Below are positions 1,332-29,037 of a stretch of 64,000 nucleotides of DNA, one piece after another. The notes beneath the pieces are model-generated. The model was given only the letters and a program-made list of their open reading frames with translations, was not told where the DNA came from and ran no database searches. Made by a program: the position numbers and the translations under genes. This stretch comes from Melampsora larici-populina 98AG31 (taxonomy: Eukaryota; Basidiomycota; Pucciniomycetes; Pucciniales; Melampsoraceae), in the NCBI RefSeq assembly GCF_000204055.1, contig NW_006768774.1:512612-576611 (forward strand), given 5' to 3'. Each line of letters opens with the position of its first letter. Position 1 is the stretch's first letter.

Positions 1332-1339
1332 CCCAATAC
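1332..1339. repeat. left target-site duplication of the KDZ element
   Basis: CCCAATAC directly abuts the left terminal inverted repeat and recurs at 21977-21984 directly after the right one. KDZ/Zisupton-type elements are known for 8-bp target duplications. The match could be read as 9 bp (GCCCAATAC) if the last base of the element is counted, but 8 bp keeps the two ends symmetrical. Confidence 0.93.
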
Positions 1340-1744
1340 CACCTGTGGCCCCTAGATTACTCGGCCCCGAACCGAAGATAATGCGTGCATTATCATGGGA
1401 TAGTATCCCAAAATCGGGTCGCAGATGAGGCCAGAGCTGCCAGAGTAGTCTGAGAAAATTTTTCAAAAATAGCTTCCAAGTTTCCACAAATTTACCTCAT
1501 CAAGTTATGATATCATATGACTTTTTCTATGTTCTGAACACCCATTGGGATGTATTCAGAAATTTTTAGCCCATCTCACTGTCATCAGACACCTCTAAGA
1601 GGGATAAACGCGCTCAAGCTCACAATCTGGCTCATCTGACCGAATCTGGCTAAGCCTAGATTCATCTGACTGAGTCTGGCAGCCGACTGGACTCTGGCCT
1701 GTGTATTTTTTCAAACCAACTTCTCAGATTCATCTGGCCACACA
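1340..1744 (+). repeat. left terminal inverted repeat of the KDZ element
   Basis: This 405-bp segment is the reverse complement of 21572-21976 with roughly three mismatches by eye (near 1451, 1560 and 1640). It begins CACCTGTGGCCCCTAGATTA, includes a GC-rich palindromic stretch around 1362-1420, and ends in CATCTGGCCACACA. High identity suggests recent insertion or gene conversion between ends. Confidence 0.95.
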
Positions 1745-2725
1745 ACTTCCCACCCACTGTAGTTCCACATATATATACGCTGTAGCTGCAGCAGATGAGT
1801 CTGACCAGACCTGCAGATTCGTTTGTTCCAAGATATTTACACCGAACCTACATACAGTCATAAGTCAATCTGACTAGCCCCGATGGTCAACTACCACCAA
1901 TCCATCCCACCTGGTGAGTTCGGATAGTGGTTACCAAGACCATCAAGTCAGGGGAGATCTCATCTGGTATCATCTGAGCAGCTCCTCATCTACATACATA
2001 AAATGTACTCGCTCACACCACCCATCTGGCCAAGGTAACTCTTTGAGTTGAATTACCAAACCCCCTTTGCCTTCTTCCTGGATTGGTACACAGCCTACCT
2101 GTATCATAACACAAAATTTATTTCAGCTTCCAACTGTCACTACCTTCATGTGAACACACAACAATCAGATGATAAATGATTATTAGGGAAGCGTTCCTAA
2201 CCTCATTTAGAAAAGAATGATAAGATGAAGACCGAAAAATAGAGAGTATGATGAAATTTTTATGAACTGTCTTTCAACAATGAGAATGCCAAAGGTATTA
2301 TACATACTTCCAGGTGGAAAAATACCACTTGTACCGTTTGTCATCAAATGTTTAGGCACTTATGAGCATTAGACATTGCTCATGCTAAATGTACCATCTC
2401 CCCTCTGTTCAACAAGTAGAGTGAGGTGCAACTACCAAATCAGCAGGGTTATGAAGTGATGAACACTGACTACATACAAGTGGTGAGTTGGGTTCTTGTC
2501 TCATCTGGCAGAAAATTGAGTCAACTTGCAAAGGGGGCAGATGCATCTGCCCTCATCTGCCCAAAACAAAACTTCGGGCAAACAAGTCTGACTTCATCTG
2601 GCAGTCAGAAGATCAACTGAAAAAAGTTGAGTCACACCGGTAAAAGGGCAGATACATCTGCCCTCATCTGGCCGGCTCCTTCTTTCACTCGGGTTAGGGA
2701 GCATCTCATCTGTCTTCATCTTGTC
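1625..2725. repeat. left subterminal CATCTG repeat cluster
   Basis: Short motifs of the form (T)CATCTGNC or the reverse complement recur irregularly: around 1629, 1660, 1731, 1792, 1961, 1970, 1987, 2031, 2501, 2543, 2552, 2594, 2652, 2663 and 2705. A matching cluster lies inside the right end. Subterminal arrays of short motifs in large DNA transposons are typically transposase-binding sites, and that role is inferred here. No gene is supported in this interval. Confidence 0.75.
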
Positions 2726-2916
2726 ACAGACTAATCTCGCCCACATCATCATGAAGGTACTCATATTGAAGAAGATGAGTACCTTTTACAATAGTTCACA
2801 TGTTCTCTCATTTTTTGTTCTCTCGATGTTTGATTCAGTGAACAGCAAAACTGGATAAAATCATTACAAATTTGTGCGCAAAAACATGAAATCATTGACT
2901 ATACTTAACAAGAATC

Positions 2917-5003
2917 TTACTCTTCGTCTTCACTGTCCCCTTCAGAAGAACTCCCACTCCCCTTTTTGTTTTTTTCACCTTCATTTTCTGCTCCTTGACT
3001 TGCAGTAATCTCACCAACTGCCACTGCCTTGTCTATCTCACGTGCCGGTGTCGCTAAAGCCGTCTTAATCTCATTAGCGTTCAAAACTACCGGCTCCCCA
3101 ATCCTTTCTTCAGAACCAACCCTGAGTTCAACTAAACGAAAAAGACCATCCTTTATGTCGTTGATCCACTCGAGTCTTATAGCTGATCGCATTTTCTTGA
3201 ATCCAACCATCAGTTTTTCATCGGTTAATCTTGAGCCTTCTTCAAGGATAATCCCAATGGGAAGACTCCTTTTCTTCAATTCTGCAACCGGATCAGCGGT
3301 CTGCGGGAATGATTGAGTGGGTAAGTAGCCTAATGTTTTAACTGACAGTGTAATACCATTAGATCTTTGAGAGCTTTGAAATCAGAAAGAATCAATATTG
3401 TATGAAAAGTAATTACGTGTAATACCAGCAAGAAGACGTCCTAAATCAATCTTGATTTTGTCACTAGGCTGTAGCTTGTCGCTCCTTTGTCGTTTTGGTT
3501 TTGGATGAGTCGACGCAATTGCCTTGGCCATTGATTCACCTTGTGAGTACGTAGCAAATACTGCAGCAAGATTCAACTTGTCATTGGCCCAAGTTGCTAC
3601 CTGCGGATGGGTTGTGAACTCCTTGAGCCACCCTAGATCTTTTGATTTATTCGGGGTAACAGTGCTTGTTGCAACTAGGTAGTAGGCGAAATCCAACCTA
3701 TTTGCTTCACATGCAAGCTAATACCAAAGAGAGAGTGAGCTGTATTCAAAAAACACAATTACGAGTTTTAAATAACACCTACCTGATGTGAAATCTTCTC
3801 AATTGCAGTCTTAGATTTACGTTGGAGTTGTGAGTTTGAAGGACCTGATGGAGGCTTTTCTAATTCAGCGGTCACCTTCTTCAAATCCACCATACGTTTG
3901 TATATAGGGCGATAAAGCTCATCTTCCTCAATGCTCAGCTTGTGAACTGTTGGCACTGGGACAAAAGAGTCGCCACGATCATCTTCTTGTTCATCGTCAT
4001 CGTCCCGGTCAACTTCGTCCGATTCAAAATCCAAGGGGTTGGGCACGCCAGCCAGAGCATAGAAGTTTGTTGGGTGAAATACCGCCCTCTCATCGTCAGA
4101 AAGGCTATCCCATCGTTCTCCATTCTTTCGGTTACGATCACCCAAGACAGTATCACCATCATCTTGCGCTTTTAGCGGCACTGAGGTGAGGACGAGCAAA
4201 TGCCGAGGTCAGCATTGTAATTAACCTATGTACTGGAAGGTTCCACTCACTTGGTTCGGCTAGACAATCTACACAGTATTTGAGGAAAAGTGTATAAGCA
4301 CTTGCTTTTTGTATGGCAGCGACTTCGGGTCTGAAATGTATGTACAAACAATGTGAGCAAAATGGTTTGAAATTATCAAAGATTGATTTGTAAACAGATT
4401 GAGAGTATGAGAAATCAGTTGAGAAGAACAAGAAACTGTAAAATCCAATTCAGAGAAGGACACGAATAAAAAAAAATTGATTTAGAGAAAGATCAACCTA
4501 CATATAAGACTTGATGGTGCTTTCACTAACTTCACCAATCATAGCAAGCATGAGGAGCTCTTGCTTGAAGAGCTTGTAGACTAATTTAACACGACTTTGG
4601 ATGTCGGATGGTGGGCGGTTCTTGTTTGAATGCTTCTTTTCTCGGAGATGTTTCCGAATACGGCCAGGAGGCCATGATGACATCAACTCCCGATAATTTT
4701 GCAGTGTAGGAGTGACATCAGCTTCCACACGATTGGTACTTTTAGATTCGTTCGGAACGCTATTAGATTCTTCTTTGTTGTTGTCCTCAGCTCGGTAGGA
4801 AGATGTTCTGCTGCAGGTTCAGAGGTATCATTCTGTGAGTCGTTGCGAATTCTTTTGGCTATGGGTGCTCTGCGTGGTGGAGGTCTCTTGGTGTTGCGTC
4901 CGGCGTTTGGTACATCCCCGGGAGCTGTCTCTTTTGGTCCAGCAGGTGCTTGATTGGGAGAATTAGAGGTATTTCCTTGGCGGTTTCGAGTGCGAGGAGG
5001 CAT
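2917..5003 (-). CDS. conserved-looking KDZ cargo protein of unknown function
   Basis: A multi-exon gene reading right to left from an ATG at 5001-5003. Later exons join cleanly in frame with GT-AG borders: 4330-4251, 4180-3783, 3717-3417 and 3329-2917. The N-terminus is basic and proline-rich (MPPRTRNRQG, RPPPRRAP). The middle contains NYRELMSSWPPGRIRKHL, then an acidic linker (about 4030-3950), and the C-terminus is strongly acidic (SSSEGDSEDEE). I recognise no catalytic motif. The layout recalls a widely repeated hypothetical family in rust genomes, from memory only. The first exon (5003-4502) has a one-base frame conflict around 4750-4830 that no obvious intron resolves, so this copy may be frame-shifted or have an unrecognised first exon. 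It sits next to the left subterminal repeats, convergent with the transposase. Confidence 0.6.
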
Positions 5004-5754
5004 GGAAGATTCAATGGTTCCGTGTTGGAGGCAGAAAGATAATGAAAAAGATCAAAGACAGTGGAGGAAAAGGTTTGGGATCTACACAGAGGTATTTACC
5101 GCCTTATAAGTGATCTTACATATCACATCAAAGTATGTAACATACAGACTACATGGCACTCATACAGTTACTACTCGTTGATCTAGTACTGTTTGTATTC
5201 ATGTTTACATTTCAAAGTGAGTAGGACCAAGAACACAAATATGATCAGAAGAAGCTTTGTTGTTTGGTAAAGTTGTACATTGATTGTATATTTTTGGAGA
5301 TGATTGTATTATAATTCAAAAAGATATTAACAAGATTCTGGACATAATGATCACTACCTCCACGTGCTTTGATGTGATATTTATACAAACAGGCTTCAGT
5401 ATGAGGGGGGACCATTCAACCATCATATTAAATCAATCACATAGCTAAATGCTGGGATTTTGAAAGACTGTAGGGTCAACAATGCAACACACCATCATTG
5501 CTCACAAAATGAATAATACCCCCCATGTTATTTTGGTGGTATATATAAAGATAATGAGTGCTTGGTCAGTTCCAATATAAACACCCATTGTATTGATATA
5601 TTCTAATATATTAATACAATCACAACCACATGGTTATTGCCTACACTTTGCTTTCACAGTGTCATTTTGGAGGGTTATACACTATACAATTTTAATTGTG
5701 TAGTGTCAATTTCTCATTTTGTGAAGAGAGGTAATGTACATTTAATGTTGTGGT
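5004..5754. other. intergenic, no gene seen
   Basis: AT-rich sequence upstream of the minus-strand cargo gene and left of the tandem array. It should contain that gene's promoter, but I cannot pick a specific element. No ORF here resembles a protein I know. Confidence 0.5.
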
Positions 5755-7085
5755 GTGATTGATTTCCCCACACATTCACTCAGGGGCTGTGTCTGCAGGA
5801 GGGTTCACTCATAAACTCAAGATGTGGCATACTGTAACTTGGTACAGGTGTAGTGTAACTCACAATTACCCTGTTCTGACAAGTTCACTCGTGTTTTGGG
5901 GGCTTCACCCAGATGTGATTGGACAATTCACTCCAGATTTGTCCATTTCACACCTTAAATGATGTGAAAGATGTTTTAACAACAACTTCACAAGTGGTTT
6001 GGAGGCTTCACTCCAATTGCTGTGTACAATTCACTCTGGATGCAAAAGTACATTTTACACATCAAGCCTTGTGAAATGTACTTTTCTGACCTGTTCACTC
6101 TTGTTTTGGGGCCTTCACCAAGATGTGATGGGACAATTCACTCCAGAAACGTCCATTTCACACCTTGAATGTTGTGAAAGATGTTTTAAAGACATCTTCA
6201 CAAGTGTTTTGGAGTCTTCACTCCAATTGCTTTGTACAATTCACTCTGGAAAGGTACATTTTACACATCAAGTCGTGTGAAAGGTACTTTTCGCACGTCG
6301 TGTGCAAGGTACTTTTCACACGACTTGATGTGTAAAGGCTGATGTGATGGGACAATCCCTTTTATGGAGTGAGTGTTGTGAAAAATGTTTTGAAAACATC
6401 TTCACAAGTGTTTTAGGGGCTTCACTCCTGTTGCCGTGTACACTTCGCTCCGGAAAAGTACATTTCACACATTAAGTAGTGTGAAATGTAGTATTCTGAC
6501 CCGTTCACACGTGTTTCGGAGCCTTCACTCCGATGTGATGGGACAATTCACTCCATAAAAGTCATTTTCACACTGTGAATGTTGTGAAAGATGTTTTGAA
6601 AACAACTTCACAAGTGTTTTCGAATCTTCACTCCCATTGCCGTGTACAATTCACTCTGGAAAAGTACATTTCACACATTAAGTAGTGTGAAATGTAGTAT
6701 TCTGACCCGTTCACTCCTGTTTTGGAGGCTTCACTCCAATGTAATGGGACAACCCACTCCATAAAAGTCCCTTTCACACCTTAAATGTTGGGAAAGGGTT
6801 TTTCACATCATTTAAGGTCCATATTTAGTAGCCTTCACTTGGATTACCATGGACTATTCACTAGGGAATCAGTGTAAGATGAAGTTTGACTACCACTTCA
6901 CTTGTGTTTCCCAGGCTTCCCTCAGATGTCATCGAACAATTCACTCCACAACAGTCCTTTTCACATCTTAAATGTTGGGAAAGTTTTTTTCACGACCCTT
7001 TATCCATGTTTTGAAGGGTTCACACTTGAATGATTTACACATGTTTTGTAGTCTTCACTTGCATTACCATGGCTAGATATATTTC
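5755..7085. repeat. degenerate ~190-220-bp tandem array
   Basis: The phrase GGACAATTCACTCC and its neighbours recur at about 5921, 6131, 6350, 6541, 6747 and 6933, giving spacings of about 186-219 bp. Each unit also carries TTCACACCTTAAATG/TTGTGAAAGATG, CTTCACAAGTG and GTACATTTCACAC blocks in the same order. Units diverge toward the right end. Short ORFs across the array are by-products of the repeats. The array lies between two minus-strand cargo genes and contains no gene. Confidence 0.8.
6260..6336. repeat. perfect 23-bp inverted repeat within the tandem array
   Basis: TTTACACATCAAGTCGTGTG (plus AAA) at 6260-6282 is the exact reverse complement of 6314-6336, with a ~31-bp spacer containing a smaller GTACTTTTCGCAC motif. 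It could extrude a hairpin or mark a recombination joint between oppositely oriented repeat units. Confidence 0.75.
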
Positions 7086-7476
7086 AACATCTTCACTCAA
7101 TCATCGGAGGAATCACACTTAAAAAGGAAGTCTTTCCCTCCAGCAATGGAGGTGTCACACATATCAAAACTCAGGAGAGGCTTGTGTCTCATACGTACCA
7201 TACTTATCTGGTCTTTCACTTGGTTCCTCATATGAAACCAAGTGAACATGCCATGGTAGGTTTCCACATTTGAATGCGCAGTTGAAGCCATCTGCTGACT
7301 GCTGGTGGGTTTCAAGGTATTGGGAAAGGAAGCTCTCATCATTTTTGCGAGGTAGAAATATGGGTGGAAATATTGGCCTTTTAATCATGAAGAACTGGTT
7401 TCAACATAGAACTGCATAACTCCATTCCAGAGGATAGACAACTACCACACAAATACATACTCCGATACTATACCAT

Positions 7477-8963
7477 TCATGGCAGTTGCTTGATCAACTC
7501 CTTCACCATATCAGCCCTTTTCTTCCTAGCCAACTGTGCACGTAACAATTTCTTGGCCTTACAACGATCCATTTTATCATTGTTTTCATTTATGTAAGTC
7601 TTCACACGCTCCTTTTTGAAGATTTCCCACGCTGCCGGGCTCATTTTTTCTTTCTCCTTTTCCAGCAATTGAATCCTTTGAACCAGTTTCTCGGATATCT
7701 GACAGGACGAACCAAACTGAGTGACTTTACATTCTTCAGGTTTGACCGGCTTCCCTTCCGCATTGTAAGAGTTGGAAGTGGTGGTATAATGGGGTATCTG
7801 TTTCCAAAATCATAAGGGCTCAATCATTGCGAGATATATGAAATTGTAAGAGCAAGCAACTCACTTGGCTATCCCATAGTATCTCATACACTCCATTACA
7901 ACGCGCTAGAGCAACCTTGATTCCAAAACGTCGAACAACAAAATATAGATCCTCAACAGAACCTAGTTGCGCAGCTTGAGCCCTGTCACAAGGATGACCG
8001 GTGGATCGGATGATGAGACCAAACAGACCAAAAGCATATTGAGTGTGATCATTATCAGTATGCTCTCGATTCGCAAAACCATCACATGATACCACGAGAT
8101 TCGAAGCAAACACCATTCCATTAGGTGTATCCTGCCACTCGAGGTCATGAAAGCCAGGAACTTTGGTAAGGAGACCAATGGCAATATTGGTCTTGAATAC
8201 ATAAAGTGAAAGACTGGCAAATCGTCCGGCTAAGAAATCCCTAATGATATGGAATCGCTCCATACGCTGTTGGTCCGTCAGCATCCGGTCTTCCTTAGTA
8301 GCAGTGAATGCACTCATAGCATACGCTCCTGGGTTGTTACAATGTGTCAATGGATCAATTCAGAAATAGGAAAGGTTAAAAAGGTGAAAAATATTGATTC
8401 TCACCAAGGGATTTGTCTGCATCACTTCCACCTCGCCATCCACAGCACCCCATCCAACCACAGATGTGCTCATGATCATCTTCTGGCACCTTACTGGCAT
8501 CATCCTTCTTTCGCTTATGGGAGGCATTGATGGTACATTGATTTCGAGCCCTGGCGTGAAGATAGGCAGTCGAGATGGTGTGATCGAATTGCTCGCGAAG
8601 GTCATCGTCCATGGTTCTAAATCGGTTACATCGAACGGCTATCACTAGGGATAGATCTTCCTTGTTGATCACAACCACAGTGCCATGATGAATTTCAATC
8701 ACTTTTGACTCTTCTTGATTCATGCGAGCATTTTCAGGATGACGAAAGAGGAACTTGGTATTGAGTGGAAGTCCCAGTTCAGTGGCTAGTTGGCATTTGA
8801 GCGTGGTACGTTTGCGGTGATGACGGTAATAAGCATGTCCAATACTACATCTCTTGTCTCGTTTCTTCTGATACGTCAGATGGCACGGTGAAGATTTGGA
8901 TTTGTAATTTGATGGCTTCACACCGGCCGCGAGTTTAGCTGCTCGATTACGTTGTCTCCCCAT
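7477..8963 (-). CDS. TET/JBP-like 2OG-Fe(II) dioxygenase, KDZ cargo
   Basis: Three exons (8963-8405, 8328-7865, 7797-7477) join in frame through GT-AG introns of 76 and 67 bp, giving 447 aa from the ATG at 8961-8963. An upstream TTG at 8981 is less likely as start. The N-terminus is basic (MGRQRNRAAKL). The catalytic core lies in exons 2-3: the iron-binding H-x-D appears as REHTDND (H276, D278) and the distal histidine as IPHYTTTS (H344), followed by the GSSCQ segment. These match fungal Tet-like dioxygenases, which oxidise 5-methylcytosine in DNA or are inferred to. A lysine-rich C-terminus (KEKMSPAAW onward) follows. Fungal TET/JBP genes are known to travel with KDZ transposons, so context agrees. 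No inactivating change seen. Activity and exact substrate are inference. Confidence 0.87.
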
Positions 8964-9194
8964 CACCTCAATTGCTGTCAAAGTTTCGATTGATAGAAGC
9001 TGAATTGAAATGTGAATGGAGGTCTATTCTTGACAAGAATTGACCTGATTGGCCGCTCAATGTGTCTCCGATAGGTATCTAGAACTAACAAACAGTAACC
9101 ATTCAAAAGAATCAGAACAGTAGTTGATCATAAATTGGTTTAAATTGTTTGCTGATACTAACAACTATCGTCGAGAATTGTCAATCGATCTGTA
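8964..9194. promoter_or_regulatory. upstream region of the TET-like gene
   Basis: Non-coding sequence immediately 5' of the minus-strand TET-like gene. I see no clear TATA box or other named element. Confidence 0.35.
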
Positions 9195-9356
9195 TCTATC
9201 TAGATATCTTGATAGACAAGTCGCGTATGGTAAGAATCGTTTATCTTTTGATAGATGCTTTATTGGAATTCTGATGGATCTAGATATCTTGATAGACAAG
9301 TCGCGTATGGTAAGGATCGTTTAACTTTTGATAGATGCTTTATTGGAATCCAGACT
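9195..9356. repeat. 80-bp tandem duplication
   Basis: TAGATATCTTGATAGACAAG begins at 9201 and again at 9281, and the two 80-bp copies continue through CGCGTATGGTAAG and GATAGATGCTTTATTGGAAT with only a few differences. The duplication lies upstream of the TET-like gene. Confidence 0.85.
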
Positions 9357-9390
9357 GGGTCTCTAATGTATAAAGGATGCGAGATGAATC

Positions 9391-9498
9391 CAGTAGATGA
9401 GTCTTGAGTTGAAGGTGAGGAATTCACAGTAGATGAGTCTTGAGTCGAAGGTGAGGAATTCACAGTAGATGAGTCTTGAGTCGAAGGTGAGGAATTCA
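9391..9498. repeat. 36-bp repeat, three copies
   Basis: CAGTAGATGAGTCTTGAG starts at 9391, 9427 and 9463; the period is exactly 36 bp, a multiple of three, and the copies differ at one base (GTTGAAG versus GTCGAAG). On the minus strand this gives an open repeat of 12 residues, but I see no gene context supporting translation. Confidence 0.85.
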
Positions 9499-9559
9499 AA
9501 AGCCCTTCCAATACGGTTTCGCCCTTCAGGCCGATTGATGAATATCAAGAGGAAGGCAA

Positions 9560-10276
9560 GCGAAAGTGAAAGTGGTTTGTTTGGGAGGAAAAGGTAAATG
9601 TGAGTGAAATCGTTTTCAACATATTGATTTCAAATCGTACCTTTGGATTCTTAGTGTCCCAGTTGGTTCAAAAGGGTTTGCAGTATTGAGGTAGGTCTAT
9701 CAATCTAGAAACACCAACTGTTCTCACCTTCGAATGAAAGTGAATATTGATTGATTGTAAGAGAACAATAAATGTGAGTGAAAGATGTTTCAAGATAAAC
9801 TTTTTGAATCATACCTTGGGATGAGAAGGTTTGCACGTCGTTTGGAAAGGTTCGCAGTGGTGAAGTAGGTCGTTCGATGTAGAAACACCAAGGGATAAAA
9901 ATCTTGAATGCGGAAAACCCCACACCAAACAAACAGAATGCCGTATGACCCCCTGGTTCGTAGCACAGAGTCCAACAACACAACAGGCCAATCAGCAACT
10001 TCTGTTGTTTGATGATGGGGTTTCCTGCAGGTACGTGGAAGAGGCAGAGTGGAGTTTTGAGGTGAGGTGAGCAAGTGAATCAGATAGGGTTTCCTGCAGG
10101 TACGTGAGGTAGAGCAAGAGTGATGATTTATGTTGGTCGAGGAGGTCAGGTGAGTGAATCAACCCTAAGAATAAGATTTAGGATATTGCTTTTAGGGTTA
10201 GAGACTAACCTAACTATGTAACTTTCGTTAGGGTTAGAGATAATAGCAAACCCAATATGTCACTACTAGGTTAGGG
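9560..10276. other. non-coding, diverged internal duplication
   Basis: Two related blocks (about 9595-9720 and 9768-9895) share AAATGTGAGTGAAA, a GGTTTGCA/GGTTCGCA segment, GTAGGTC and AGAAACACCAA. The phrase GGGTTTCCTGCAGGTACGTG occurs twice (about 10018 and 10087). A few TTAGGG-type words follow but do not form an array. I see no gene. Confidence 0.55.
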
Positions 10277-10323
10277 TTCCCAAGGTCTGTAGCCGGGTTA
10301 CACCGGGCTACAGACCTTGGGAA
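10277..10323. repeat. perfect 18-bp hairpin
   Basis: TTCCCAAGGTCTGTAGCC at 10277-10294 is the exact reverse complement of 10306-10323, around an 11-base loop (GGGTTACACCG). It may be a collapsed miniature element or a structural site. No TA or other duplication at its borders is convincing. Confidence 0.8.
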
Positions 10324-10529
10324 TTTAGGGCAGGGTACCCTGAATAGCTCTACACACCGTTAACTTATGGTCTTGTGTGGGCCCTGGAATTGTAGTATGC
10401 CAAACATTGTGACCTCATCTTCATATATAGATGCCACTCATTGATTGTTCTATATATTTCAAATCATATGTAGAATATGAATATGAAATAAAAAACTAGT
10501 AGATGTAATGTTATGTTATTATTGGCATT

Positions 10530-12690
10530 AGAACTTTGGATGCTAATATAACAGTGTTGCAGGGGAGCCACATCAAAGTGGTATTATGAAACTCTATCTG
10601 AAATCTCATTTTGTCATCTGGGGAAACTCCAAACACCATTTACACCACATCCTCAGGGTGTTTGGAGGGTGTTTGGAGTGTCACAGCAAATTAGGGGGTG
10701 GGTATTTGAGGCTTTGGATGCTAATATAACACTTTTGCAGGAGGGCCACATCAAAGTGGTATTATAAGAGTCCATCTGAAATCCAATTTTGTCATCTGGG
10801 GGAACTCCAAACACCATTTATACCACATCTTCAGGGTGTTTGGAGGGTGTTTGGAGTGTCACAGCAAATTAGGGGGTGGGTCTTTGAGGCTTTGGATGCT
10901 AATATCACAGTGTTGCAGGGGGGCCACATCAAAGTGGTCTTATGAGACTCTATCTGAAATCCAATTTTGTCATCTGGGGGAACTCCAAACACCATTTATA
11001 CCACATCTTCAGGGTGTTTGGAGGGTGTTTGGAGTGTCATAACAAATTAGGGGGTGGGTGTTTGAGGCTTTGGATGCTAATATAACACTTTTGCAGGAGG
11101 GCCACATCAAAGTGGTATTATAAGACTCTATCTGAAATCCAATTTTGTCATCTGGGGGAACTCCAAACACCATTTATACCACATCTTCAGGGTGTTTGGA
11201 AGATGATTGGAGTGTCTTAGCAAATTAGGGGGTGGCAAATTACAGGTTTGGTTGCCATTATCACAAATTTGAGGTTCAGAGTAGTCAAAGTTGTATTATA
11301 AGACTCAATCTGAATTTCAATTTTGTCATCTGGGGGGGCTGAACAGGCCCAAATTGAGACATCTTCAATGTGATTGGGGTATATTTTCATTTGGGATGTG
11401 AGGGTCAGACCTGCTGAAATAAGGATTTGGCTGCCATTTTGATGGTGAAGAGTTGGAGATGAGCCAAAAGTGTATTATGAAACTCTATCTGAAATTCCAT
11501 TTTGTCATCTGGGGGGGCCCAAAACACAGTTTGGCTTACTTTTAAAGGTTGTCTGACCTGTTACCATTTCCAAAATCTGATGAAAAACCATTGTGGACAA
11601 GGAAATTCACCAAACACGCAAAATTGGTTTCATGAAGCAATTTTCACCACAAATTTTCATGCTCAGGCCAAGGATGTAAGCAAAACTGTGTTTTGGCCCC
11701 CCCAGATGACAAAATGGAATTTCAGATAGAGTTTCATAATACACTTTTGGCTCATCTCAAACCCTTCACCATCAAAATGGCAGCCAAACCCTTATTTCAG
11801 CAGGTCTGACCCTCACATCCCAAATGAAAATATACCCCAATCACATTGAAGATGTCTCAATTTGGGCCTGTTCAGCCTCCCCAGATGACAAAATTGAAAT
11901 TCAGATTGAGTCTTATTATACAACTTTGACTACTCTGAACCTCAAATTTGTGATAATGGAAACCAAACCCGTAATTTGCCACCCCCTAATTTGCTAAGAC
12001 ACTCCAATCATCCTCCAAACGCCCTGAAGATGTGGTATAAATGGTGTTTGGAGTTCCCCCAGATGACAAAATTGGATTTCAGATAGAGTTTCATAATACC
12101 ACTTTGATGTGGCTCCCCTGCAACACTGTTATATTAGCATCCAAAGCCTCAAAGATCCACCCCCTAAGTTGCTGTGACACTCCAAACACCCTCCAAACAC
12201 CCTGAAGATGTGGTATAAATGGTGTTTGGAGTTCCCCCAGATGACAAAATTGGATTTCAGATAGAGTTTCATAATACCACTTTGACTACTCTGAACCTCA
12301 AATTTGGGATAATGGCAACCAAACACATAATTTCCCACCCCCTAATTTGCTATGACACTCCAAACACCCTCCAAACACCCTGAGGATGTGGTATAAATAA
12401 TGTTTGGAGTTCCCCCAGATGACAAAATTGGATTTCAGATAGAGTCTCATAATACCACTTTGATGTGGCTCCCCTGCAACACTGTTATATTAGCATCCAA
12501 AGCCTCAAAGACCCACCCCCTAATTTGCTATGACACTCCAAACACCCTCCAAACACCCTGAAGATGTGGTATAAATGGTGTTTGGAGTTCCCCCAGATGA
12601 CAAAATTGGATTTCAGATAGACTTTTATAATACCACTTTGATGTGGCTCCAACACAAAGGCGTATTACTGGCATCCAATGGTCCAATTAC
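10530..12690. repeat. inverted array of 178-bp repeats (foldback structure)
   Basis: In the left arm GCCACATCAAAGTGGT occurs at 10567, 10745, 10923 and 11101, exactly 178 bp apart. In the right arm the reverse complement recurs with the same phase (ends near 12113, 12469 and 12647; 178-bp multiples). A variant unit (TTTGACTACTCTGAACCTCA) is found in both arms (about 11250-11310 and 11920-11945) and again at 12280, so units were shuffled. Arms meet at a unique ~150-bp centre near 11530-11690. Each unit carries TTTGTCATCTGGGGG and a doubled GGTGTTTGGAG motif. Short ORFs across it are repeat by-products. I cannot define a target duplication. Confidence 0.85.
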
Positions 12691-13634
12691 CATCCACCCC
12701 ATAACCTCACATCCGCAATGAAAACTCATATAATAAGATTTGAATTGACATGAAACCAATCAAATATGACTCAAATGTATGACATGGAGTCTACAACATG
12801 TAAGGAGTGCATTAAATCCACGTGTAGTTCAACCATTGAGCTAAAACTATAGTCAATGGTTGAGTTGAAATTATATATACAATGGACTACTGTCATGGCC
12901 TGTCATTAGTATGACAGACCTGTGTATCATTTGTTCCACTGACTGTCCCATTGTTGGACTACAGCTACACGTTGTCGACAACATCATCTTGACCGAAGGA
13001 ATGTGCACTTAAATCCTATTGAATTGGACAATAGGAGTTAAGACCCATCTTATGTGGGAATCTCGCAATATAACCAATCCCTAAACTGACAAGTAAGGAT
13101 TGGATGGACAAGATACTGTTGGGGCCCAGGTGAGAGTTTGGCAAACAACCATTTTGAAATCAAGATTCTCGAACAATCTACAGTTAAACTTCCATAGTTT
13201 CCTGTAGATTGTCACCACCTGCCCAGGAAGCTTATTGAGTGGCATGTCAGCCAACCTGATCGTGAGATAGACACAATATGTACCTTTGACATCCCAAAAG
13301 GTTATTTCAAATTTCGACAGATGACAGTCCAATAACAATAATACACACAATTGTGTATTATTTTGGTCAGCATGAACGCACAACGGCCCAACTGAAATAA
13401 ATCAAACAAGAAATCCAACACAATGTTTCAATTTAAACTGAGCTATCAAGAAACACAGATCTTAGTAGCTTTGATCTAGAATTTCATACAATGTAAACAA
13501 AGAAAAAATAGACTAATGTGCTATAAGTCTTTAAGGCAAACATCCTTAGTAGCATGTATCATGTCATGTTCTGATGTCTTGGAGTATACAATATGAAGCA
13601 AGAAAACTACTATATCAATAGACTAAAAACTTAA
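12691..13634. other. intergenic, no gene seen
   Basis: Region between the 178-bp array and the stop codon of the OTU gene. A 100-codon minus-strand ORF (13081-13383) has no recognisable motif. A short inverted repeat GTTCAACCATTGA lies near 12826-12866. Confidence 0.5.
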
Positions 13635-16394
13635 TCAGTCACTATCACCATCTTTGTTATCACCCTTATCAGATTCTCGGGAAGAGTCATCATCTTCCTC
13701 AATGTCAACTAGAATGCGTCGGGTTTCCGAATTATCTGAGGACTGTTGAGCAATCCATGCCCGTTGCCATTTCAGATTCATGAAGAGTATGATTTTGTTT
13801 TCGTAGAACGTGCCCCAACGCTCGGCCTCTCCCCATCGTACATCTTTCCAATCTGGATGAAGGAAGGGGATTGGTAGGTGGTCATTCCAAATGAGATCGA
13901 GAGATATAAAGTGATTCTTGTTGATGAAACCCAAGACAATCGTTTGACCGGAAGTATACCTGAGCTTAGGATCAGGAGATACGAAACAAGGTGGGATAAA
14001 TTTGGAGTTGGCATCGGATGGGCTGTAAAAGATGACCGGCAGGTTATAAGTGTTAGCTATGATGTAACCACCCATGGGCATGGGGAACCATTCGCTTGGT
14101 TTGGCAGTCGGTTCGGTAGAGTCCAGTATGGAGGCAATACTTGCAAAATCGAAGTCACTTGAAAACTTAGGTATGTTTTCAGTGTACCAGTTTGTCATCT
14201 CATGTAGATGACGGGCAAGCTCCGCTCGAACAGCTTGGGCTTCATCAGGCGACCGTCCAAGTGAGACTGCCACAGACGAGAAAGCGCAAAGGCCATCTTG
14301 ACGCACATTGGTAGCCATCTTGATGGAGGGTAAAATGTATCGCGGAAGCGTTTCCACAAATGGCCATTGCTGAAACGGAACGTTGTAATGGGTATCAGTA
14401 TGTGAGATCATACATATATGGTCAGCAATCTGTAATCACCTTTAGAACCTCCTTCTCAATCTCTTCGTCTTCCTCCATTTGTTCGGGGCTTGGCACATAT
14501 TGACACTTCGATGCAGAAGGAGATCAGAGTACTATTGTTAAATCATTGAAATGTCTAAGTACTCACTTTTAGTTTTGCCATGCTCCTGCTCGTCTTGGTC
14601 GTTGAAGTAGTAGACCTGATATCAGGTTCCCGATCCAGGACAATGGAAGTGGAAGTAGTCGCCAGTGAATCTTGGGGTTCTGATATTGGTGTGGCACCTG
14701 AGTTGGCTGCAATTGGAGTGGGAGATTGTGATGCACTGACCTACCCGAGAAAGAATGACTTTGGTTAGTGTACTACTTCACTTGAAAATATAGATTATGG
14801 ACATACTACTTCTTTCAAAACTGGATTGAGGCGCGTAGAGGATCTCAGTGCAATTTGTGGGGTTTCTTTACCTTTGCCTTTGCGACCTCTGCTGGCCTTT
14901 GATGCGAGAGCAGGAACAGGTGTTGGATCGGGGTTTGCTGGTGGTTCAACATCGCCGTTTGGTTCCAAATTGACGCTATCATCATCCTCGTCGATTGCGA
15001 CCCACCCCTTTGGCATCTTGCGTTTTTTTGGTTTGGGTACTGAGAGTGAGGTTGACGAGTGAGGAGAGATGAGCGTGGTATCAATGCTGGTTTTGTTGGT
15101 CTTGGTGTTGGTGTTTTTACGTTTGCGACCACAACCTCGCTTGATAGGTGCCGGAGCTTGTTGAAGTACAGGACCCAAATCTAGAGCAGGATCTGGATTA
15201 GGTATTGGATTGTCTGAAGTGGCTCTCGGATTGGTGTGAGTTTCCTTTGGGAGCTCTGGCTGATTGTTTTTGGCATTTGAATCATATGGGTCGAAGGCAG
15301 GCAGGTCTTCCGAGGTAGGTTCTACATTGACCAAAAGTGAGCAATCAAGAAATCACAATAATCTTAGAGGAAAGGAACATACCTTGTTCTTTCGAAGTAA
15401 CTCCGAGATTATGATATACACCTTGATCGTCATCAGCCATGATTTTCTCGATATTGGTTTGATTGATGGCTTCTAGTAAAGCTTGATCGGCGTCGGCATT
15501 TGCTTGCTCATTGTTCGATGGAGTTGGGTCTTTAGCAGTCGTAGTCGTAGGCGCTTCAGAGATATTAGTAGTCGCTTCATCGATGTGGGAAGGAGGATCA
15601 TGAGATTGAGCAGGTGTGGGACTAGCCACCTTCACCGGATGGAATGTTGACGGTGAAAGTGGGGTTACAAACTTGTCCAAAGGACTCAGATGAGTGATCG
15701 GGCTTTTAAGTGGTCTAGTGGTTGAATTTTTCATTTGAAGTTGTGTTGAAACTGGAATATCCAGAGTTTTCGAGGAGGTAGCGAGTGAGTGTGAAAGAGG
15801 GTTGATCAAAGCAGGTGTTTCGAGGTCCTTGGCAAACTCGCAGTCACGTAGAAAACGGGTGATGAGACATGTTTGGGTATGGGTTGAGAGCCTTTGCATG
15901 GCATCGAGTAACTCTTGATATCGATTTGAAAGGTACCCAGGTTGGTGAGGTGGAGCAGAGATGTGAACGATTGGTTCGGGTGCTTGAGGTTGAGTTGGAA
16001 TGATCACTGGAATCAATTCAATCGTATTTTGTGTTGCATGGTTATGCGTCGCATTCTCTATGTCGAGGTAGACCCGCCTTGAACGCCGTAGGTTGCGGAC
16101 TGTCACACGAAAAGGACAAGTCTTGAGGTTTGTTGATGGTGATTTGCCCTCTTTGGCTTCGTTCTTCGCTTTCGTGGGGTGTCGATGATCACCTAGGAAG
16201 CATTTGTAGTAGATTGATGTTGTTCGGGTGTCGCGTGTGGTAATGGTAAATCCATGAGCGGCTGCGTAGGAGTCGAGGTATGCTTTCATCGTTACTCGAT
16301 CAGGATAAATCAGGTCATCTCGAGGGGGAGGAGGAGAAGGGAATTGGGAAGTTGATTCAATTTGTCCAGTCTCTGGATTCGGAGGGTCGTCCAT
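13635..16394 (-). CDS. FAR1/GCM-like zinc domain fused to OTU-type cysteine protease, KDZ cargo
   Basis: Five exons (16394-15383, 15321-14807, 14740-14567, 14505-14440, 14369-13635) with GT-AG borders sum to an open frame of 833 aa from an ATG at 16392-16394. Residues about 35-120 resemble the FAR1/WRKY-GCM1 fold of transposase-derived DNA-binding proteins, with putative zinc ligands C65, C93, H117 and H119 (YYKCFLGD, KTCPFRV, THNH). Residues ~220-590 are low-complexity, P/S/T-rich and basic, with an AT-hook-like KRGCGRKRK. The C-terminal ~245 residues fit an OTU protease: QDGLCAFSS (putative D614 and C617), a VRAEL helix, and NHFISL (H742). OTU enzymes cleave ubiquitin or ubiquitin-like chains; substrate here is unknown. 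The tail is acidic. It lies back to back with the transposase gene. OTU call moderate, zinc-domain call tentative. Confidence 0.75.
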
Positions 16395-17557
16395 GGTTGG
16401 AATGATATGTGTGTGAAGAAAAGTATATGGTTGATTTGTGAAGGGTGAACAGTGAAAGCCGATTGATCGGGTTTGACTGTCAGTTATGGGTTTATGGGGT
16501 TATGTATTGGTGTTTGGATATTCTTAGGGGTATTATTACGTATTTAGTGCATAGAAATATGAAAGATGTGTGAAAGACATCTGTTTATGAGGGGGTAAAT
16601 CGGTGTATGGAGTGAAGATGGACTTCCCACCAAAAAACAAAGTAGGGGAGTGAAACTTGATGGAAAGTGTGTGAAAATGCATACTTGATGCTCCGGATGA
16701 TGTGTGTAGGTGCACGCTAAGTGCATCCTGACCAGCTCACATGATGCCCCAGATGTTGTGTGTAGGTGCACTGGTGTTGGAGCATGACCAATACTTGATG
16801 CTCCGGATAATGTGTGTAGATGCACGGGTGTGAGAGCATGACCACGGGTCGGACCAAGTGCATCCTGACAAGCGCACTTGATGCTCCACATGTTGTGTGT
16901 AGGTGCACCGGTGTTGGAGCATGTGCTCCGGATAATGTGTGTAGATGCACGGGTGTGAGAGCATGACCAGGAGCAGTACATGCTCTTTTATTGATCCATA
17001 AACAAATCATCTTCTTTTAACGTAGTCTTTCTTTTAATATTTAATTATACTCAGGAAACCTCACCTCCTTTTCATCAGAATTATTGTTCAGGCAAAAGTA
17101 CTGGATGTACCCAAGTAACTTACCTAAATGGGTTTCTCTAGCTGGAGTGGCTTGGTTTGATTCATCTCGATAAGTGTAATGAATCACTGTATGTAATTCA
17201 GACTGCTAGTCAGTGATCGCAAAGGGACTGGAGCTACTGCTTTTGAACATGGAAAGCATCAAGGGAGGTGGTGGGAGGTGAAAAAAGTCGCAAGGTATTT
17301 CAAGGACTTACCTAAAAGGTAAAAAGACGTGGCACGTCAAACTTGTAAGCTTGGTGACCATCATCAACTCAATTGATTGTAGGTACTTTCCAACAACTTT
17401 CCTACGGCTAATCAAAGCCCAACCGACCAAAAGAGGCAATTATAAAAAAATAATGTGCAAATGATACACATAACTAGCTGGGGATTGCTATTCATCTTGC
17501 GCTAGGTACCCCTCATCGTTGTCTGCTTCAATTTTTGACTTTTACTCACCAATCCAC
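16395..17557. promoter_or_regulatory. divergent intergenic region between OTU and transposase genes
   Basis: This ~1.16-kb region separates the two divergently transcribed genes and must contain both promoters. It includes the minisatellite at 16680-16980. The stretch AATTATAAAAAAATAATG near 17440-17455 could serve as a TATA-like element about 110 bp before the transposase ATG. That assignment is weak. Confidence 0.35.
16680..16980. repeat. minisatellite with TGATGCTCCGGATAATGTGTG-type units
   Basis: Units of about 60-70 bp carry a TGATGCTCC core, TGTGTGTAGRTGCAC and GAGCATGACC, in roughly five imperfect copies (starts near 16686, 16741, 16796, 16880 and 16924). ORFs running through it on the minus strand consist of the repeat translated and are not genes. 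Confidence 0.8.
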
Positions 17558-20500
17558 ATGGCCCCTCGTAATCGAACCAACCTTTCGCGTCCAACAAATC
17601 GACTGAAGAAACCTAGGAACGAAGCGAGTCAATCTGCTCAAGAGTTGTCTGAATGGGATGATAATGAAGAAAAGTGGTGTGCAAAAGAATGTGACCTGCT
17701 CAGCCGTGCACTCACCCAGCCGGAACCAGCTACAAACAACCCCTGGCCCAATGAGATTGAGGGTGATCAATTTATTGGCGGTAACGACGGGTATTATGAC
17801 TTTGATGACGATGCTCACACACCGCCTCATGAGTCATCAGATTCAGGAGCAGAATCTGATGATTCTGTGCACTCACTTGCTTCCGATACTGACGTTGGTG
17901 TCGTGGGTGCTCGGATAGCGGGGGAATACAACCGTCGGCGTCGAATACGAGAGGAAAGGCAATGGGAGGAGGTCCTTGAACCAATGTTCAAAGTCTTCAT
18001 GCTATGCAAACTCCTCACATTCAATTGGAGTCAATCTGAGACTTGGAATTTTGACAATAAAGATCAATGTCGATGCTCGGTGGCAAAGATACGAATCCGG
18101 AACCTGGATTTTGTTGATATATTGAGTGAGAGTCTACAGGATTTTAATCATCTGATTCTAAGGAATAAATTAACACTCTCTACTTACTTCGACAGCACAT
18201 ACAACACAAGCCGTAAAATTCTGCTCCTGTCAGCCAGACCAAGTCCGGCTGATTCAACTGGGCTACATCGGCGGTTCGCCAGCTCTGCCAGAAATTGCAT
18301 TCTCTTTACGGCTGTTACGGCTACATGATGCTCTCTGGAGGTTTTGTTGTCTCCGTACACATCCTTTTGCTCAAGCACTAGAGTATTTTCACCGGGCAGC
18401 TCTTCGATTTGTAGATGATGTGACTAAGAAGGTATGTAGAGAGTAGACTTGATGTTTGAATCTCTAGTAAAAACTGATAGTCAAAATTGTCAGCCCCAGA
18501 GATGGGGCAGACTTTTTTCCTGTGCGGTAGACGCATATAGACGATTACTCCAGATGAAAGAAGATCTTGAGTGCCGGGCAATGCAACTGTCGAAGAAGGA
18601 AAAGTTAGGAGGCAATTGCCCACGCTGTTTTGGCGAGAATGTATATCCTAAAAGAGAAGGGGAACCTCACTATGTAGTATGCATCGACGGTAATTTCCAA
18701 CAAAGACGACATAAATCGGCAAGTGTTGAGCACAGCGAAATTGAAATCCGCTACCCAAAATTATTTCTCCATCCCAACCAGGTCAAACAGTGGGAAAATA
18801 CACATCCTGGCGCTTCAGATGATGCACCGGTAAGTCAACCTTCTGTAGATATATATTCATTGAAGGTGATAGCCACTAAAATCACATATCATTTAGGATC
18901 CTTGCACGCAGATGCACACTGCTGCTAATGATTCGAGGAGTGCATCAACATGGCGTGCCTGTGATGACACAGGCCTTTTGGTCATGGTTTGTCGTCACGA
19001 CCATGCATTAGCCTTTGTAAACATTGTACAAAGTGGTGAGAAGTATGCTCGCACATCTCTCTTTTTCATGATTATATCAAGAAAGTCTAATTTTTATGTC
19101 TCTCTAGATCATATTTTGCGCATTCCCTGATTGGTTGGTTCCTCCAGCAGTTGGATGAGGAGGACTCTAAGGTTGCCTTACTCTACGATATTGGATGTAA
19201 CATCGAGAAAGGCCTTATTAGAGTTAAGTATATTGATTGCCATTAAATATCAATTCGGCCTTTTTTTACTGATGGTAAATTTTGAACACATTGTAGCACA
19301 ACCTTTTCAAAGTGGAAAGAAGTAAAGCACGCTTCAAATTTGGTACAAGCGTGTTCCACGCATATGTACACAGCTGGAGTTGCCAGCTGGATTACAACCC
19401 CAGATTAAATATTGGATGGGGGTTGTCCGATGGAGAGGGTTGTGAACGGTGTTGGTGTAAGCTCTGTAAATTGGTTGCAGGTCTACGTTATTCTACAAAG
19501 CAGCATCGAATAGATGCACTGGATCACAAAGCTGCACACAAAAACCAAGTCTTGCGTATAAACTCTGGTGGGAAATCAGTCCTTGTCTATCCTATCTTGA
19601 TTCACAATTCCAACATCCGCTGTTTTGTTTCCAGCTGCTTCCGCCTATAACAAATTAGGAATAGCGGAGAAAACCCGAGGGGAAAAGCTACAGATTCTTG
19701 TTGAGCTCGAGACAAAACGTGGATATTCCCACAACTATTTTGCTGATCAATGGGCTCGTCAAAAAAGAATACAGGCAGAAGTCATGAATGATACCAACAC
19801 AAATCAGCTGAAGCTACAACTTGAGGACTTGATTGAGCATGAAGAGGATCTGAGAGAGATCAAGTACGTACCTTTTTGCTATCTCGTTATTATGAGTGGC
19901 TGCTAATTGGTATAAGCTTCAGGGAGAAAATGGACAACCTACGCCGCAAGCAACGCAGAACAGCAGCTGAAAATCGTACACTGGCAAGCTTGCCAGGACA
20001 TATTGCATTTTTGGAAGAAGAAGTTGAGAGAATTTCATTAGAACTTGGTGGCGACAAGTTCAGACACATACCCAAGTCCAAAGGTAAGACAATGTTTTAG
20101 TATGTTATGTTGATCATTTATATGTTGACTTTCCTTAAATGTACGTAATAGATCCACGGGGGTGTTTATTGATACAGATAAGGGTGGCAAAGGCAAAAGT
20201 ATATGAGGCAAAGGTCGGAATTATTGAATTAGCAAAAAAATGGGAGGCAGGTAAGTTTGTCGGGGGTACAAAACTGATGAGAATGAAAGCTGAAGTCTTT
20301 TCTCACCGTTTTATGTAGGCACAACACAGCAGCAACGTATGAAGGCTGTGATGACTACAAAACAGACAATCTTTCGAACGAAGTGGAAGACCTTTCATGA
20401 TCTTGTTGTAAAGTACAACCTTTTGTATCCAGACGAAACCCCGCTGATCAACTTTACGCTGGAGGAAGCAAAATCGTTGACTCTGGATGACGCCTTCTGG

Positions 20501-21057
20501 AACTTTGGGCATCTCACGCATCCAGATGAAAATTGGGCGGTGGATGCAGACACCCAGAAGGGCATTCAAGCTTATTTGTTGTATTGCCGGTGCGAAGAGG
20601 AACTGAGGCGGATTGCACATGAGGTACGACAGATGTTTAGATGGTCTCTGGAAACGGACACCAAAATACAAAAGGTGTTCATGCTTGCACAGTCAGGTTA
20701 GCCTTTCTTTGGATGATACTTGATTGTTCTTTCTGTTACACTGAATTTGACTATACTTCTTTATTTTTTGTATACTCAGGATGGGACCCAACCGCCATGG
20801 TTCTTCCAATAGAATTAGTGCAGGGCAGCAAGGCATCTCGGATTGTTAACAAGACAAATTGGGAGGAGTGCAGCGATACCTTGGAGTCTTTATATCATGG
20901 GCTCTTTCTTGATCATGCCCGTCTGATCTTTAGATGGGACACCTACCTAGTGTCCCTTCTGCACAACACTCGGCAATATTCTGAAGCCAGTATTGCCGAA
21001 GACCAAGTTTTGGAGGCTCAGTGGAAGAACATGCTACATACCACTCTTAATGGATGA
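17558..21057 (+). CDS. KDZ transposase (CxC1 type), apparently intact
   Basis: Eleven exons (17558-18125, 18196-18431, 18494-18829, 18897-19042, 19108-19222, 19297-19567, 19635-19863, 19923-20083, 20152-20250, 20319-20696, 20780-21057) with GT-AG introns give an open frame of 938 aa. The start is the ATG of MAPRNRTN; the open frame extends upstream only to a TTG. The N-terminal cysteine cluster (CRC, then FCSCQPDQVRLIQLGYIGG, about residues 180-220) is CxC1-like. The RNase H-fold core shows CIDGNFQ (D333), FVNIVQSGEKSYF, LLYDIGCNIEKG (D456), GTSVFHAYVHSWSCQ and LSDGEGCER (E514), a plausible DDE triad. A basic, coiled-coil-like C-terminal half follows. The enzyme should excise and integrate the surrounding element. 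No premature stop found when exons are joined. Two intron borders (near 19567 and 20152) were chosen to keep the frame. Confidence 0.93.
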
Positions 21058-21571
21058 TTATTTAAGATTTCTGTTTCAACATTAACAATTACATTTGTTG
21101 GAAAACAATGAGAATGGTGGAATAGTATTGCCTGACTGACAACGGTGTGTGATATATAGGAAAAGTGAGAGAAGTCAGATTTCTGCTTTTTATGTTTAAT
21201 GGTTGAGGACGCAGAAAGAGTGTTGAAGGGAGGGGCAGATGAACCCAGATGAGACTGCCCCTCAAAGTCTTACCATATGTATTAGCCCTGAGCGAGTAAA
21301 AGCTGTGTGAGAGAAGAGGGGTCAGATGAGGCCAGATGAGAGTTCCCCCGAGTTGTTGCACGTGGATATCGCTATGTATCTGAAGTCTCCATGTAGAATG
21401 GTGTTCGGAATGTATGGGGTAAGTCAGATTATGAATCAGTTGGACTTGTATGTACGACTACGTACAGTGCTCGGTAAACAAAAACAGACTCATCTGGGAC
21501 TTGTATGTACGGTGCTCGGTAAACAAATGCAGACTCATCTGCTGAAGCTGCGGTGTCAACTGGTTGATGAA
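21058..21571. repeat. 3' region of the transposase and right subterminal CAGATG cluster
   Basis: CAGATGA/CATCTG words occur near 21233, 21245, 21322, 21333, 21490, 21534 and 21581, mirroring the left subterminal cluster. A second small repeat (GGACTTGTATGTACG ... GCTCGGTAAACAAA, about 21440-21530) is duplicated once. No gene is present. Confidence 0.7.
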
Positions 21572-21976
21572 TGTGTGGCCAGATGAATCTGAGAAGTTGG
21601 TTTGAAAAAATACACAGGCCAGAGTCCAGTCGGCTGCCAGACTCAGTCAGATGAATCTAGGCTTAGCCAGATTTGGTCAGATGAGCCAGATTGTGAGCTT
21701 GAGCGCGTTTATCCCTCTTAGAGGTGTCTGATGACAGTGAGATGGGCTAAAATTTTCTGAATACATCCCAATGGGTGTTCAGAACATAGAAAAAGTCATA
21801 TGATATCATAACTTGATGAGGTAAATTTGTGGAAACTTGGAAGCTATTTTCGAAAAATTTTCTCAGACTACTCTGGCAGCTCTGGCCTCATCTGCGACCC
21901 GATTTTGGGATACTATCCCATGATAATGCACGCATTATCTTCGGTTCGGGGCCGAGTAATCTAGGGGCCACAGGTG
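21572..21976 (-). repeat. right terminal inverted repeat of the KDZ element
   Basis: Reverse complement of 1340-1744 over 405 bp with about three mismatches by eye. It ends ...GGGGCCACAGGTG and is followed immediately by CCCAATAC, the second copy of the target duplication. Confidence 0.95.
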
Positions 21977-21984
21977 CCCAATAC
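21977..21984. repeat. right target-site duplication of the KDZ element
   Basis: CCCAATAC, identical to 1332-1339. Confidence 0.93.
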
Positions 21985-28170: not shown

Positions 28171-28221
28171 TATGTTGAAGGCATGGAAAAGCTAGCAATG
28201 AAATGAGACAACAAGGTCAAT

Positions 28222-29034: not shown

Positions 29035-29037
29035 AAT

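What the first reader, a model, noticed from the sequence alone, without database searches (positions are those of the whole stretch)
1332..21984. A complete, young-looking 20.6-kb KDZ transposon with cargo genes
Both 405-bp inverted repeats, an exact 8-bp duplication and an 11-exon transposase that stays open through a putative D333/D456/E514 triad are all present. That is unusually complete for a KDZ element, a group normally seen as fragments in repeat-rich genomes. About three differences between the repeats suggest recent movement.
Basis: partly seen in the sequence, partly recalled or inferred. Interest (0 to 1): 0.9.

Follow-up and report, generated by a model that had tools for sequence, protein, structure and literature searches.

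The report
Rust jumping gene with TET-like cargo
This stretch of the poplar rust fungus genome holds a complete 20.6-kb jumping gene that carries its own predicted transposase and a TET-like gene (predicted to edit DNA methylation) in which one amino acid that likely grips the enzyme's usual helper molecule is replaced, a change shared by close relatives whose proteins are otherwise preserved.

Summary
Window 1340-21976 (20,637 bp) is a complete KDZ-superfamily DNA transposon of Melampsora larici-populina 98AG31: 405-bp inverted repeats (402/405 identical), an exact 8-bp duplication and an open 11-exon, 938-aa transposase with KDZ and CxC1 domains and D333/D456/E514. A second copy (99.5% identical over the 1,825 bp readable) starts at the same border in different flanking DNA. 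"Unusually complete" is overstated: complete, mobile fungal KDZ elements are published, TET-carrying KDZ elements of rusts too, and this genome holds another complete relative (C18, 5.1 kb). The cargo is less ordinary: (1) a TET/JBP-like gene that keeps the iron ligands but has Gln where relatives have the Arg predicted to hold 2-oxoglutarate; 10 of 15 readable subfamily copies lack that Arg, yet copies compared show strong protein constraint; (2) a protein with an AFT/FAR1-like zinc finger and an OTU-protease-like C-terminus (resemblance weak), with relatives only in Melampsora in the one search made; (3) an HMG-like companion gene, apparently frame-disrupted near its N-terminus. CATCTG motifs crowd both ends and those of related copies. 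No empty site was found, so mobility is inferred, not shown.

The parts
1332..1339 (.). target-site duplication, left copy (CCCAATAC)
1340..1744 (+). left terminal inverted repeat, 405 bp, begins CACCTGTGG
1340..2744 (.). left terminal zone with 17 CATCTG motifs (either strand), possible transposase-binding repeats
   Evidence: 17 here; at most 5 in any of 407 windows of 1.4 kb outside
2917..5003 (-). HMG-like KDZ companion gene; well supported exons 2917-3341, 3417-3717, 3783-4180, 4251-4330, 4502 to about 4818; N-terminal part about 4819-5003 lies in another frame (apparent frame disruption)
   Evidence: HMG_box_2 E 0.084, below cut-off
7477..8963 (-). TET/JBP-like gene, exons 8405-8963, 7865-8328, 7477-7797, 447 aa; H276/D278/H344 kept, Q368 at the conserved Arg position
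   Evidence: (PF20515 2.5e-33)
10527..12698 (.). palindromic array of 178-bp repeats (arms 595 bp, 96% complementary)
13635..16394 (-). AFT/FAR1-like zinc finger plus OTU-like protein, exons 15383-16394, 14807-15321, 14567-14740, 14440-14505, 13635-14369, 833 aa; candidate catalytic C617 and H742
   Evidence: (AFT 22.1 bits, cut-off 21.6)
17558..21057 (+). KDZ transposase, 11 exons (17558-18125, 18196-18431, 18494-18829, 18897-19042, 19108-19222, 19297-19567, 19635-19863, 19923-20083, 20152-20250, 20319-20696, 20780-21057), 938 aa, D333/D456/E514
   Evidence: (KDZ 2.4e-56, CxC1 3.3e-28)
20572..21976 (.). right terminal zone with 11 CATCTG motifs
21572..21976 (-). right terminal inverted repeat, 405 bp
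21977..21984 (.). target-site duplication, right copy (CCCAATAC)

Best explanation
Window 1340-21976 is a complete KDZ transposon of the poplar rust Melampsora larici-populina that likely moves by cut-and-paste, its own predicted DDE transposase acting on the 405-bp inverted repeats and the CATCTG-rich ends and leaving an 8-bp target duplication. Shown: ends, duplication, open transposase, a second copy with the same border elsewhere, and related ends with the same motif crowding. Inferred: that the transposase binds those motifs and is active. The cargo would help the element persist: the HMG-like protein as a DNA-bending partner, the TET/JBP-like protein to rewrite cytosine marks that silence or mutate the element, and the AFT/FAR1-OTU-like protein to bind DNA and remove ubiquitin or a similar tag. 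Within this element's TET subfamily the Arg expected to hold 2-oxoglutarate has been replaced (Gln here) while the protein stayed constrained; most likely the protein still acts on DNA with weakened or changed co-substrate use, or as a non-catalytic partner.
For: Ends and duplication. Transposase domains and triad. Second copy C13, 9 differences in 1,825 bp, different outside flank; at all three TIR differences it agrees with the left TIR. Family ends: 4 termini with at most 3 mismatches in the genome; C18 derivative with 8-bp duplication TATATTAT. CATCTG 7.1-13.5 per kb in the terminal 1.4 kb of 6 of 6 copies examined, against 0.3-1.0 per kb outside. Constraint, dN/dS: transposase 0.100/0.591 (C31, 422 codons) and 0.145/0.964 (C235, 361 codons); HMG-like 0.185/1.397, 0.164/1.088, 0.205/2.795 (C235, C30, C6); TET pN 0.16-0.32 with synonymous sites saturated in 5 of 5 comparisons, while simulated neutral change gives pS about equal to pN. 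Genome linkage: 18 of 55 HMG-like loci and 28 of 150 TET loci lie within 8 kb of a KDZ exon, random means 1.1 and 3.1.
Against: No empty site, no expression data, no observed movement. The HMG-like gene appears frame-disrupted at about 4.82 kb. Exon 6 has a weak donor. The OTU call rests on motifs and one borderline profile match (E 0.017); Pfam gave none and the structure model was useless (pLDDT 35). HMG is below Pfam's cut-off, and only 2 of 16 relatives gave a weak HMG match. The place of the Arg was inferred from motif order; no solved TET matched the rust profile. The C235 relatives each show one stop in the aligned blocks.
Confidence: 0.85

Rival explanations
1. The element is an immobile relic that merely looks fresh: its companion gene is broken and its transposase may be mis-spliced or silent.
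For: Apparent frame disruption in the HMG-like gene; weak exon-6 donor; only one other near-identical copy seen.
Against: TIRs 99.3% and copies 99.5% identical, open 938-aa transposase, low dN/dS against relatives.
Confidence: 0.25
2. The TET-like protein is an ordinary 2-oxoglutarate-dependent TET whose pocket uses another basic residue; the Q/H/L/C exchange is neutral to its chemistry.
For: Iron ligands kept; strong constraint on copies without the Arg; neighbouring Lys residues could stand in; the Arg equivalence is inferred.
Against: The Arg is present in 7 of 7 readable members of the more distant L030-L036 set and is called strictly conserved in the TET and NgTET1 structures (PMC7854593, passages).
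Confidence: 0.35
3. The TET-like protein is a non-catalytic partner (DNA binder) kept for a structural role in transposition.
For: Loss of the predicted 2-oxoglutarate Arg with retained constraint.
Against: H276, D278 and H344 are all kept, which a non-enzyme would not need.
Confidence: 0.25
4. The AFT/FAR1-OTU-like gene (with its repeats, about 9-17 kb) is a separate later insertion nested in a three-gene KDZ element, not true cargo.
For: None of the 4 M. americana relatives lies on a contig of the same length as a transposase hit; other linked groups show transposase, HMG-like and TET genes.
Against: No inner pair of terminal repeats around it was listed among the longest repeat pairs; it lies within the TIRs.
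Confidence: 0.35

Closest known systems
TET+ Dileera (KDZ) transposons of rusts, e.g. Zisupton-1_PGr (PMC12730594)
   Same: KDZ transposase, TET/JBP-like gene, 8-bp duplications, Pucciniales hosts; the paper reports such families in M. larici-populina
   Different: The paper's main text has no hit for OTU, FAR1 or HMG. Its Table S1 was not seen, so this very family may already be listed. Loss of the 2-oxoglutarate Arg is not mentioned in the sections read (19, 23, 26).
KDZ1, KDZ2, KDZ3 of Cryptococcus neoformans (PMC12810828)
   Same: KDZ plus CxC1 transposase, TIRs, 8-bp (KDZ1) or 4-8-bp (KDZ2/3) duplications, full length; observed to move
   Different: 9-11 kb and TIRs of 139-241 bp against 20.6 kb and 405 bp; no TET cargo seen in the passages read
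CMD1, the Chlamydomonas TET homologue that uses vitamin C (PMC7854593)
   Same: Keeps HxD...H but has no basic residue placed to hold the far carboxylate of 2-oxoglutarate
   Different: CMD1 has an Arg at the aligned site that points away; the rust copies have Q/H/L/C there. Co-substrate of the rust proteins untested.
OTUD5 OTU domain (PDB 3tmo)
   Same: Collinear DGxC...H segments, best PDB match of the 3-sequence profile
   Different: E 0.017 only, no Pfam OTU match, no reliable model

Membership tests
KDZ superfamily transposon | KDZ (RNase H-like) transposase domain, PF18758 | tested here: met
   2.4e-56, 191.3 bits, cut-off 26.6
KDZ superfamily transposon | CxC zinc-cluster domain next to the transposase | tested here: met
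   CxC1 3.3e-28
KDZ superfamily transposon | D-D-E catalytic triad | tested here: met
   D333, D456, E514 in columns at least 90% conserved in 10 aligned proteins (9 of 37 hits used)
KDZ superfamily transposon | 8-bp target duplication at inverted-repeat ends | tested here: met
   (also the C18 relative)
Dileera branch of KDZ | transposase falls in the Dileera clade | not tested
   No tree with named Dileera, Kyakuja and Zisupton transposases was built; relatives are Melampsora and Puccinia proteins
TET/JBP dioxygenase (PU type) | Tet-like 2OG-Fe(II) oxygenase domain | tested here: met
   PF20515 2.5e-33
TET/JBP dioxygenase (PU type) | HxD...H iron ligands | tested here: met
   H276, D278, H344
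TET/JBP dioxygenase (PU type) | Arg that holds the C5-carboxylate of 2-oxoglutarate | tested here: not met
   Q368 at the aligned site; equivalence inferred from motif order
OTU cysteine protease | DGxC and His motifs in an OTU domain | tested here: inconclusive
   Motifs present; PDB profile E 0.017; Pfam none
AFT/FAR1-type (WRKY-GCM1) zinc finger | Pfam AFT/FAR1 domain over cut-off | tested here: met
   AFT 22.1 bits, cut-off 21.6, a narrow pass; FAR1 below cut-off
HMG-box protein | Pfam HMG domain | tested here: inconclusive
   HMG_box_2 E 0.084, 14.0 bits, cut-off 22.4; 2 of 16 relatives weak

The most novel reading that the evidence does not exclude
Rust KDZ transposons have evolved TET enzymes that no longer use 2-oxoglutarate: with the Arg gone they use another co-substrate, perhaps an ascorbate drawn from the host leaf as CMD1 uses vitamin C, and write a new cytosine modification that shields the element from silencing and mutation.
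Probability: 0.08. Interest if true: 0.88.

Novelty: new variant of a known kind. Interest (0 to 1): 0.5.

Why it matters
TET genes carried by transposons are thought to undo silencing marks, but their chemistry in rusts is untested. A constrained TET subfamily without the expected 2-oxoglutarate Arg gives a sharp, cheap test of whether these proteins are 2-oxoglutarate enzymes at all. The element also offers a well-bounded KDZ substrate (ends, motif arrays, open transposase, short derivative) for studying how this little-known superfamily moves.

Tried and rejected
Looked at and put aside: (a) that C13's match ends at 20152, an exon start, because of a processed or recombined copy: the sequence there is a run of N, so the coincidence means nothing. 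(b) OTU fold by structure prediction: pLDDT 35, not searched further; HMG-like model pLDDT 50, not searched. (c) Solved TET relatives by profile: none at E 1 and only an unrelated hit at E 10. (d) Empty sites by flank search: none. (e) Insertion into a gene: no clear gene at the left flank. (f) My finder's first transposase model skipped conserved exons and was replaced by the homology-checked one; its model of the HMG-like gene differs from relatives in exons 1-3. (g) RNA families and tRNAs: none in the window. (h) C-terminal TET tree: of 14 inner branches 3 are well supported and 8 left open; it groups the five Leu copies but not the Q/H copies, so how many times the Arg was lost is open beyond that.

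Full report
What was checked. The inverted repeats at 1340-1744 and 21572-21976 are 405 bp and differ at 3 positions. They are flanked by CCCAATAC at 1332-1339 and 21977-21984, the only two occurrences in the window. The element is 20,637 bp. The genome is held as G000 (98.3 Mb, 243 contigs). Protein hits that are 100% identical over the part covered come from Melampsora larici-populina 98AG31.

Copies and borders. A search with the TIR gave 10 matches in the genome, of which three are 99-100% identical: the two ends here and C13:526669-527073. A pattern search with the first 34 bases (up to 3 mismatches) found four termini: these three and C31. The C13 copy matches 1,825 bp of the right end with 9 differences and then runs into N. 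Its outside flank is different (ACTAGACG), and similarity stops within one base of the border. At the three positions where the two TIRs here differ, C13 agrees with the left one, so the three changes probably arose in the right one. In C18 a related element has both ends 5,087 bp apart, a 96.7% repeat over 275 aligned columns and the duplication TATATTAT; within it only the last part of the transposase was matched, so it is probably a deletion derivative. No other end was found for the C31, C30, C235 and C6 copies in the stretches fetched, several of which hold N.

Transposase. Eleven exons with ten GT-AG introns of 59-83 bp give 938 aa. Pfam: KDZ 2.4e-56 and CxC1 3.3e-28. D333, D456 and E514 sit in nearly invariant columns of an alignment with 9 of the 37 proteins found. 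Against C31 (422 codons, no stops) dN 0.100 and dS 0.591; against C235 (361 codons, one stop in the aligned blocks) 0.145 and 0.964. These counts use blocks with at least 40% local identity, which lowers dN somewhat.

TET/JBP-like gene. Three exons, 447 aa, PF20515 2.5e-33. The genome holds at least 150 matches to this family (150 of 263 candidates scored) and at least 207 KDZ exon matches (150 of 555 candidates scored). The iron ligands are present (H276, D278, H344). At the position that reads ITRF/YTRL in relatives the window has VTQF. The Arg was seen in 7 of the 8 loci best matching the Pfam family (L030-L036; L037 gave no hit). In the window's own subfamily I fetched 14 C-terminal exons listed separately, not a random sample; 13 could be read at this position and L072 could not. 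With the window and L077 that makes 15: Arg 5, Gln 3, Leu 5, His 1, Cys 1. The five Leu copies group together with support; the rest of that tree is mostly unresolved. Compared with five relatives, amino acids are constrained (filtered pN 0.16-0.32; unfiltered 0.18-0.40) while synonymous sites are saturated (pS 0.75-0.88), with no stops; a neutral simulation gives pS and pN about equal. Four of these five relatives themselves lack the Arg: C4, C2, C32 and C230; C18 has it.

Why that Arg may matter. In HsTET2 and NgTET1 two Arg residues hold the two carboxylates of the 2-oxoglutarate analogue, Arg1896 and Arg289 the far one, and CMD1, which uses vitamin C, lacks a basic residue placed there (PMC7854593, passages only). 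That the rust position corresponds to Arg1896 is my inference from motif order (HxD...H...TR) and from the Ser four residues on, as between Arg410 and Ser414 of CMD1. No solved TET was found by the rust profile, so this was not tested structurally.

HMG-like gene. Relatives: 17 proteins, 10 from M. larici-populina, 6 from M. americana, one unnamed. Four of the 6 M. americana relatives sit on contigs whose length equals that of a transposase hit (1732320, 564737, 450799, 328601), so they are probably linked. Genome-wide, 18 of 55 such loci lie within 8 kb of a KDZ exon (random mean 1.08, maximum 4 of 300 draws), 28 of 150 TET loci do (3.05, maximum 9), and 7 of 55 have both a KDZ and a TET locus within 20 kb. 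That KDZ elements carry a divergent HMG protein is recalled from the abstract of Iyer et al. 2014, which is not held. HMG is below Pfam's cut-off here. Relatives read straight through the N-terminal region where the window's two halves lie in different frames at about 4.82 kb: a disruption, an assembly error or unusual splicing.

AFT/FAR1-OTU-like gene. Five exons, 833 aa. Its N-terminus just passes Pfam's AFT cut-off (22.1 against 21.6 bits). Five proteins were found among 5.8 billion: the annotated piece of this gene and four from M. americana, of which P0002 aligns over 96% at 34% identity. The DGxC motif is kept in 5 of 5 aligned sequences and the HFI motif in the 4 that reach it. A three-sequence profile has OTUD5 as its best match in the PDB (E 0.017, two collinear stretches around Cys and His), but Pfam found nothing and the model failed (pLDDT 35). 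I call it OTU-like, no more.

Ends. CATCTG occurs 17 times in the left and 11 times in the right terminal 1.4 kb; 407 windows of that size outside have at most 5. In 6 of 6 copies examined (C31, C18, C30, C235, C6, C13) the terminal 1.4 kb has 7.1-13.5 per kb, the outside 0.3-1.0. Such arrays suit a transposase-binding role; this is inference.

Known or new. TET-carrying Dileera elements with 8-bp duplications are reported from P. graminis, P. triticina and M. larici-populina (PMC12730594: outline, abstract, found passages and sections 19, 23, 26 and 34 seen). Its Table S1 was not seen, so this family may be catalogued there. That paper suggests TET cargo escapes silencing or C-to-T mutation and leaves other activities open. 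Full-length KDZ1-3 of Cryptococcus move in the laboratory (PMC12810828, passages). Searches for KDZ transposons with HMG, for OTU cargo of rust transposons and for fungal TETs with 2-oxoglutarate and arginine returned no paper; KDZ with TET and Melampsora returned two, both named here; TET with M. larici-populina and methylcytosine returned five, of which only PMC12730594 was opened.

Verdict. The maintained TET subfamily without the expected Arg and the OTU-like cargo make it a variant worth a bench test.

Noticed in passing
10527-12698: Inside the element, 178-bp tandem repeats form a large palindrome (595-bp arms, 96% complementary, 167 bp apart), also rich in CATCTGGGG; possibly a nested fold-back element.
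   Followed up: no
25980-28172: Inverted arms (55 and 273 bp, 93% complementary) about 1.6-2.1 kb apart, perhaps another DNA element; a further 289-bp pair lies at 28221-29035.
   Followed up: no
57232-58299 (-): ORF of 356 aa with a sub-threshold match to Transposase_21/tnp2 (E 3.4e-5, 23.6 bits, cut-off 28.6).
   Followed up: no
16689-16969: Degenerate minisatellite of about 46-bp units just upstream of the AFT/OTU-like gene.
   Followed up: no
L015, 4525-9611 (G000:C18): Complete 5,087-bp relative with 8-bp duplication TATATTAT and 96.7% identical ends, probably a deletion derivative.
   Followed up: partly
about 4.82 kb: The HMG-like gene's N-terminal part lies in another frame than the rest; relatives read through.
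   Followed up: partly
L065, L066, L069, L070, L071: Five TET copies share Leu at the Arg position and group together: the Arg was probably lost more than once.
   Followed up: partly
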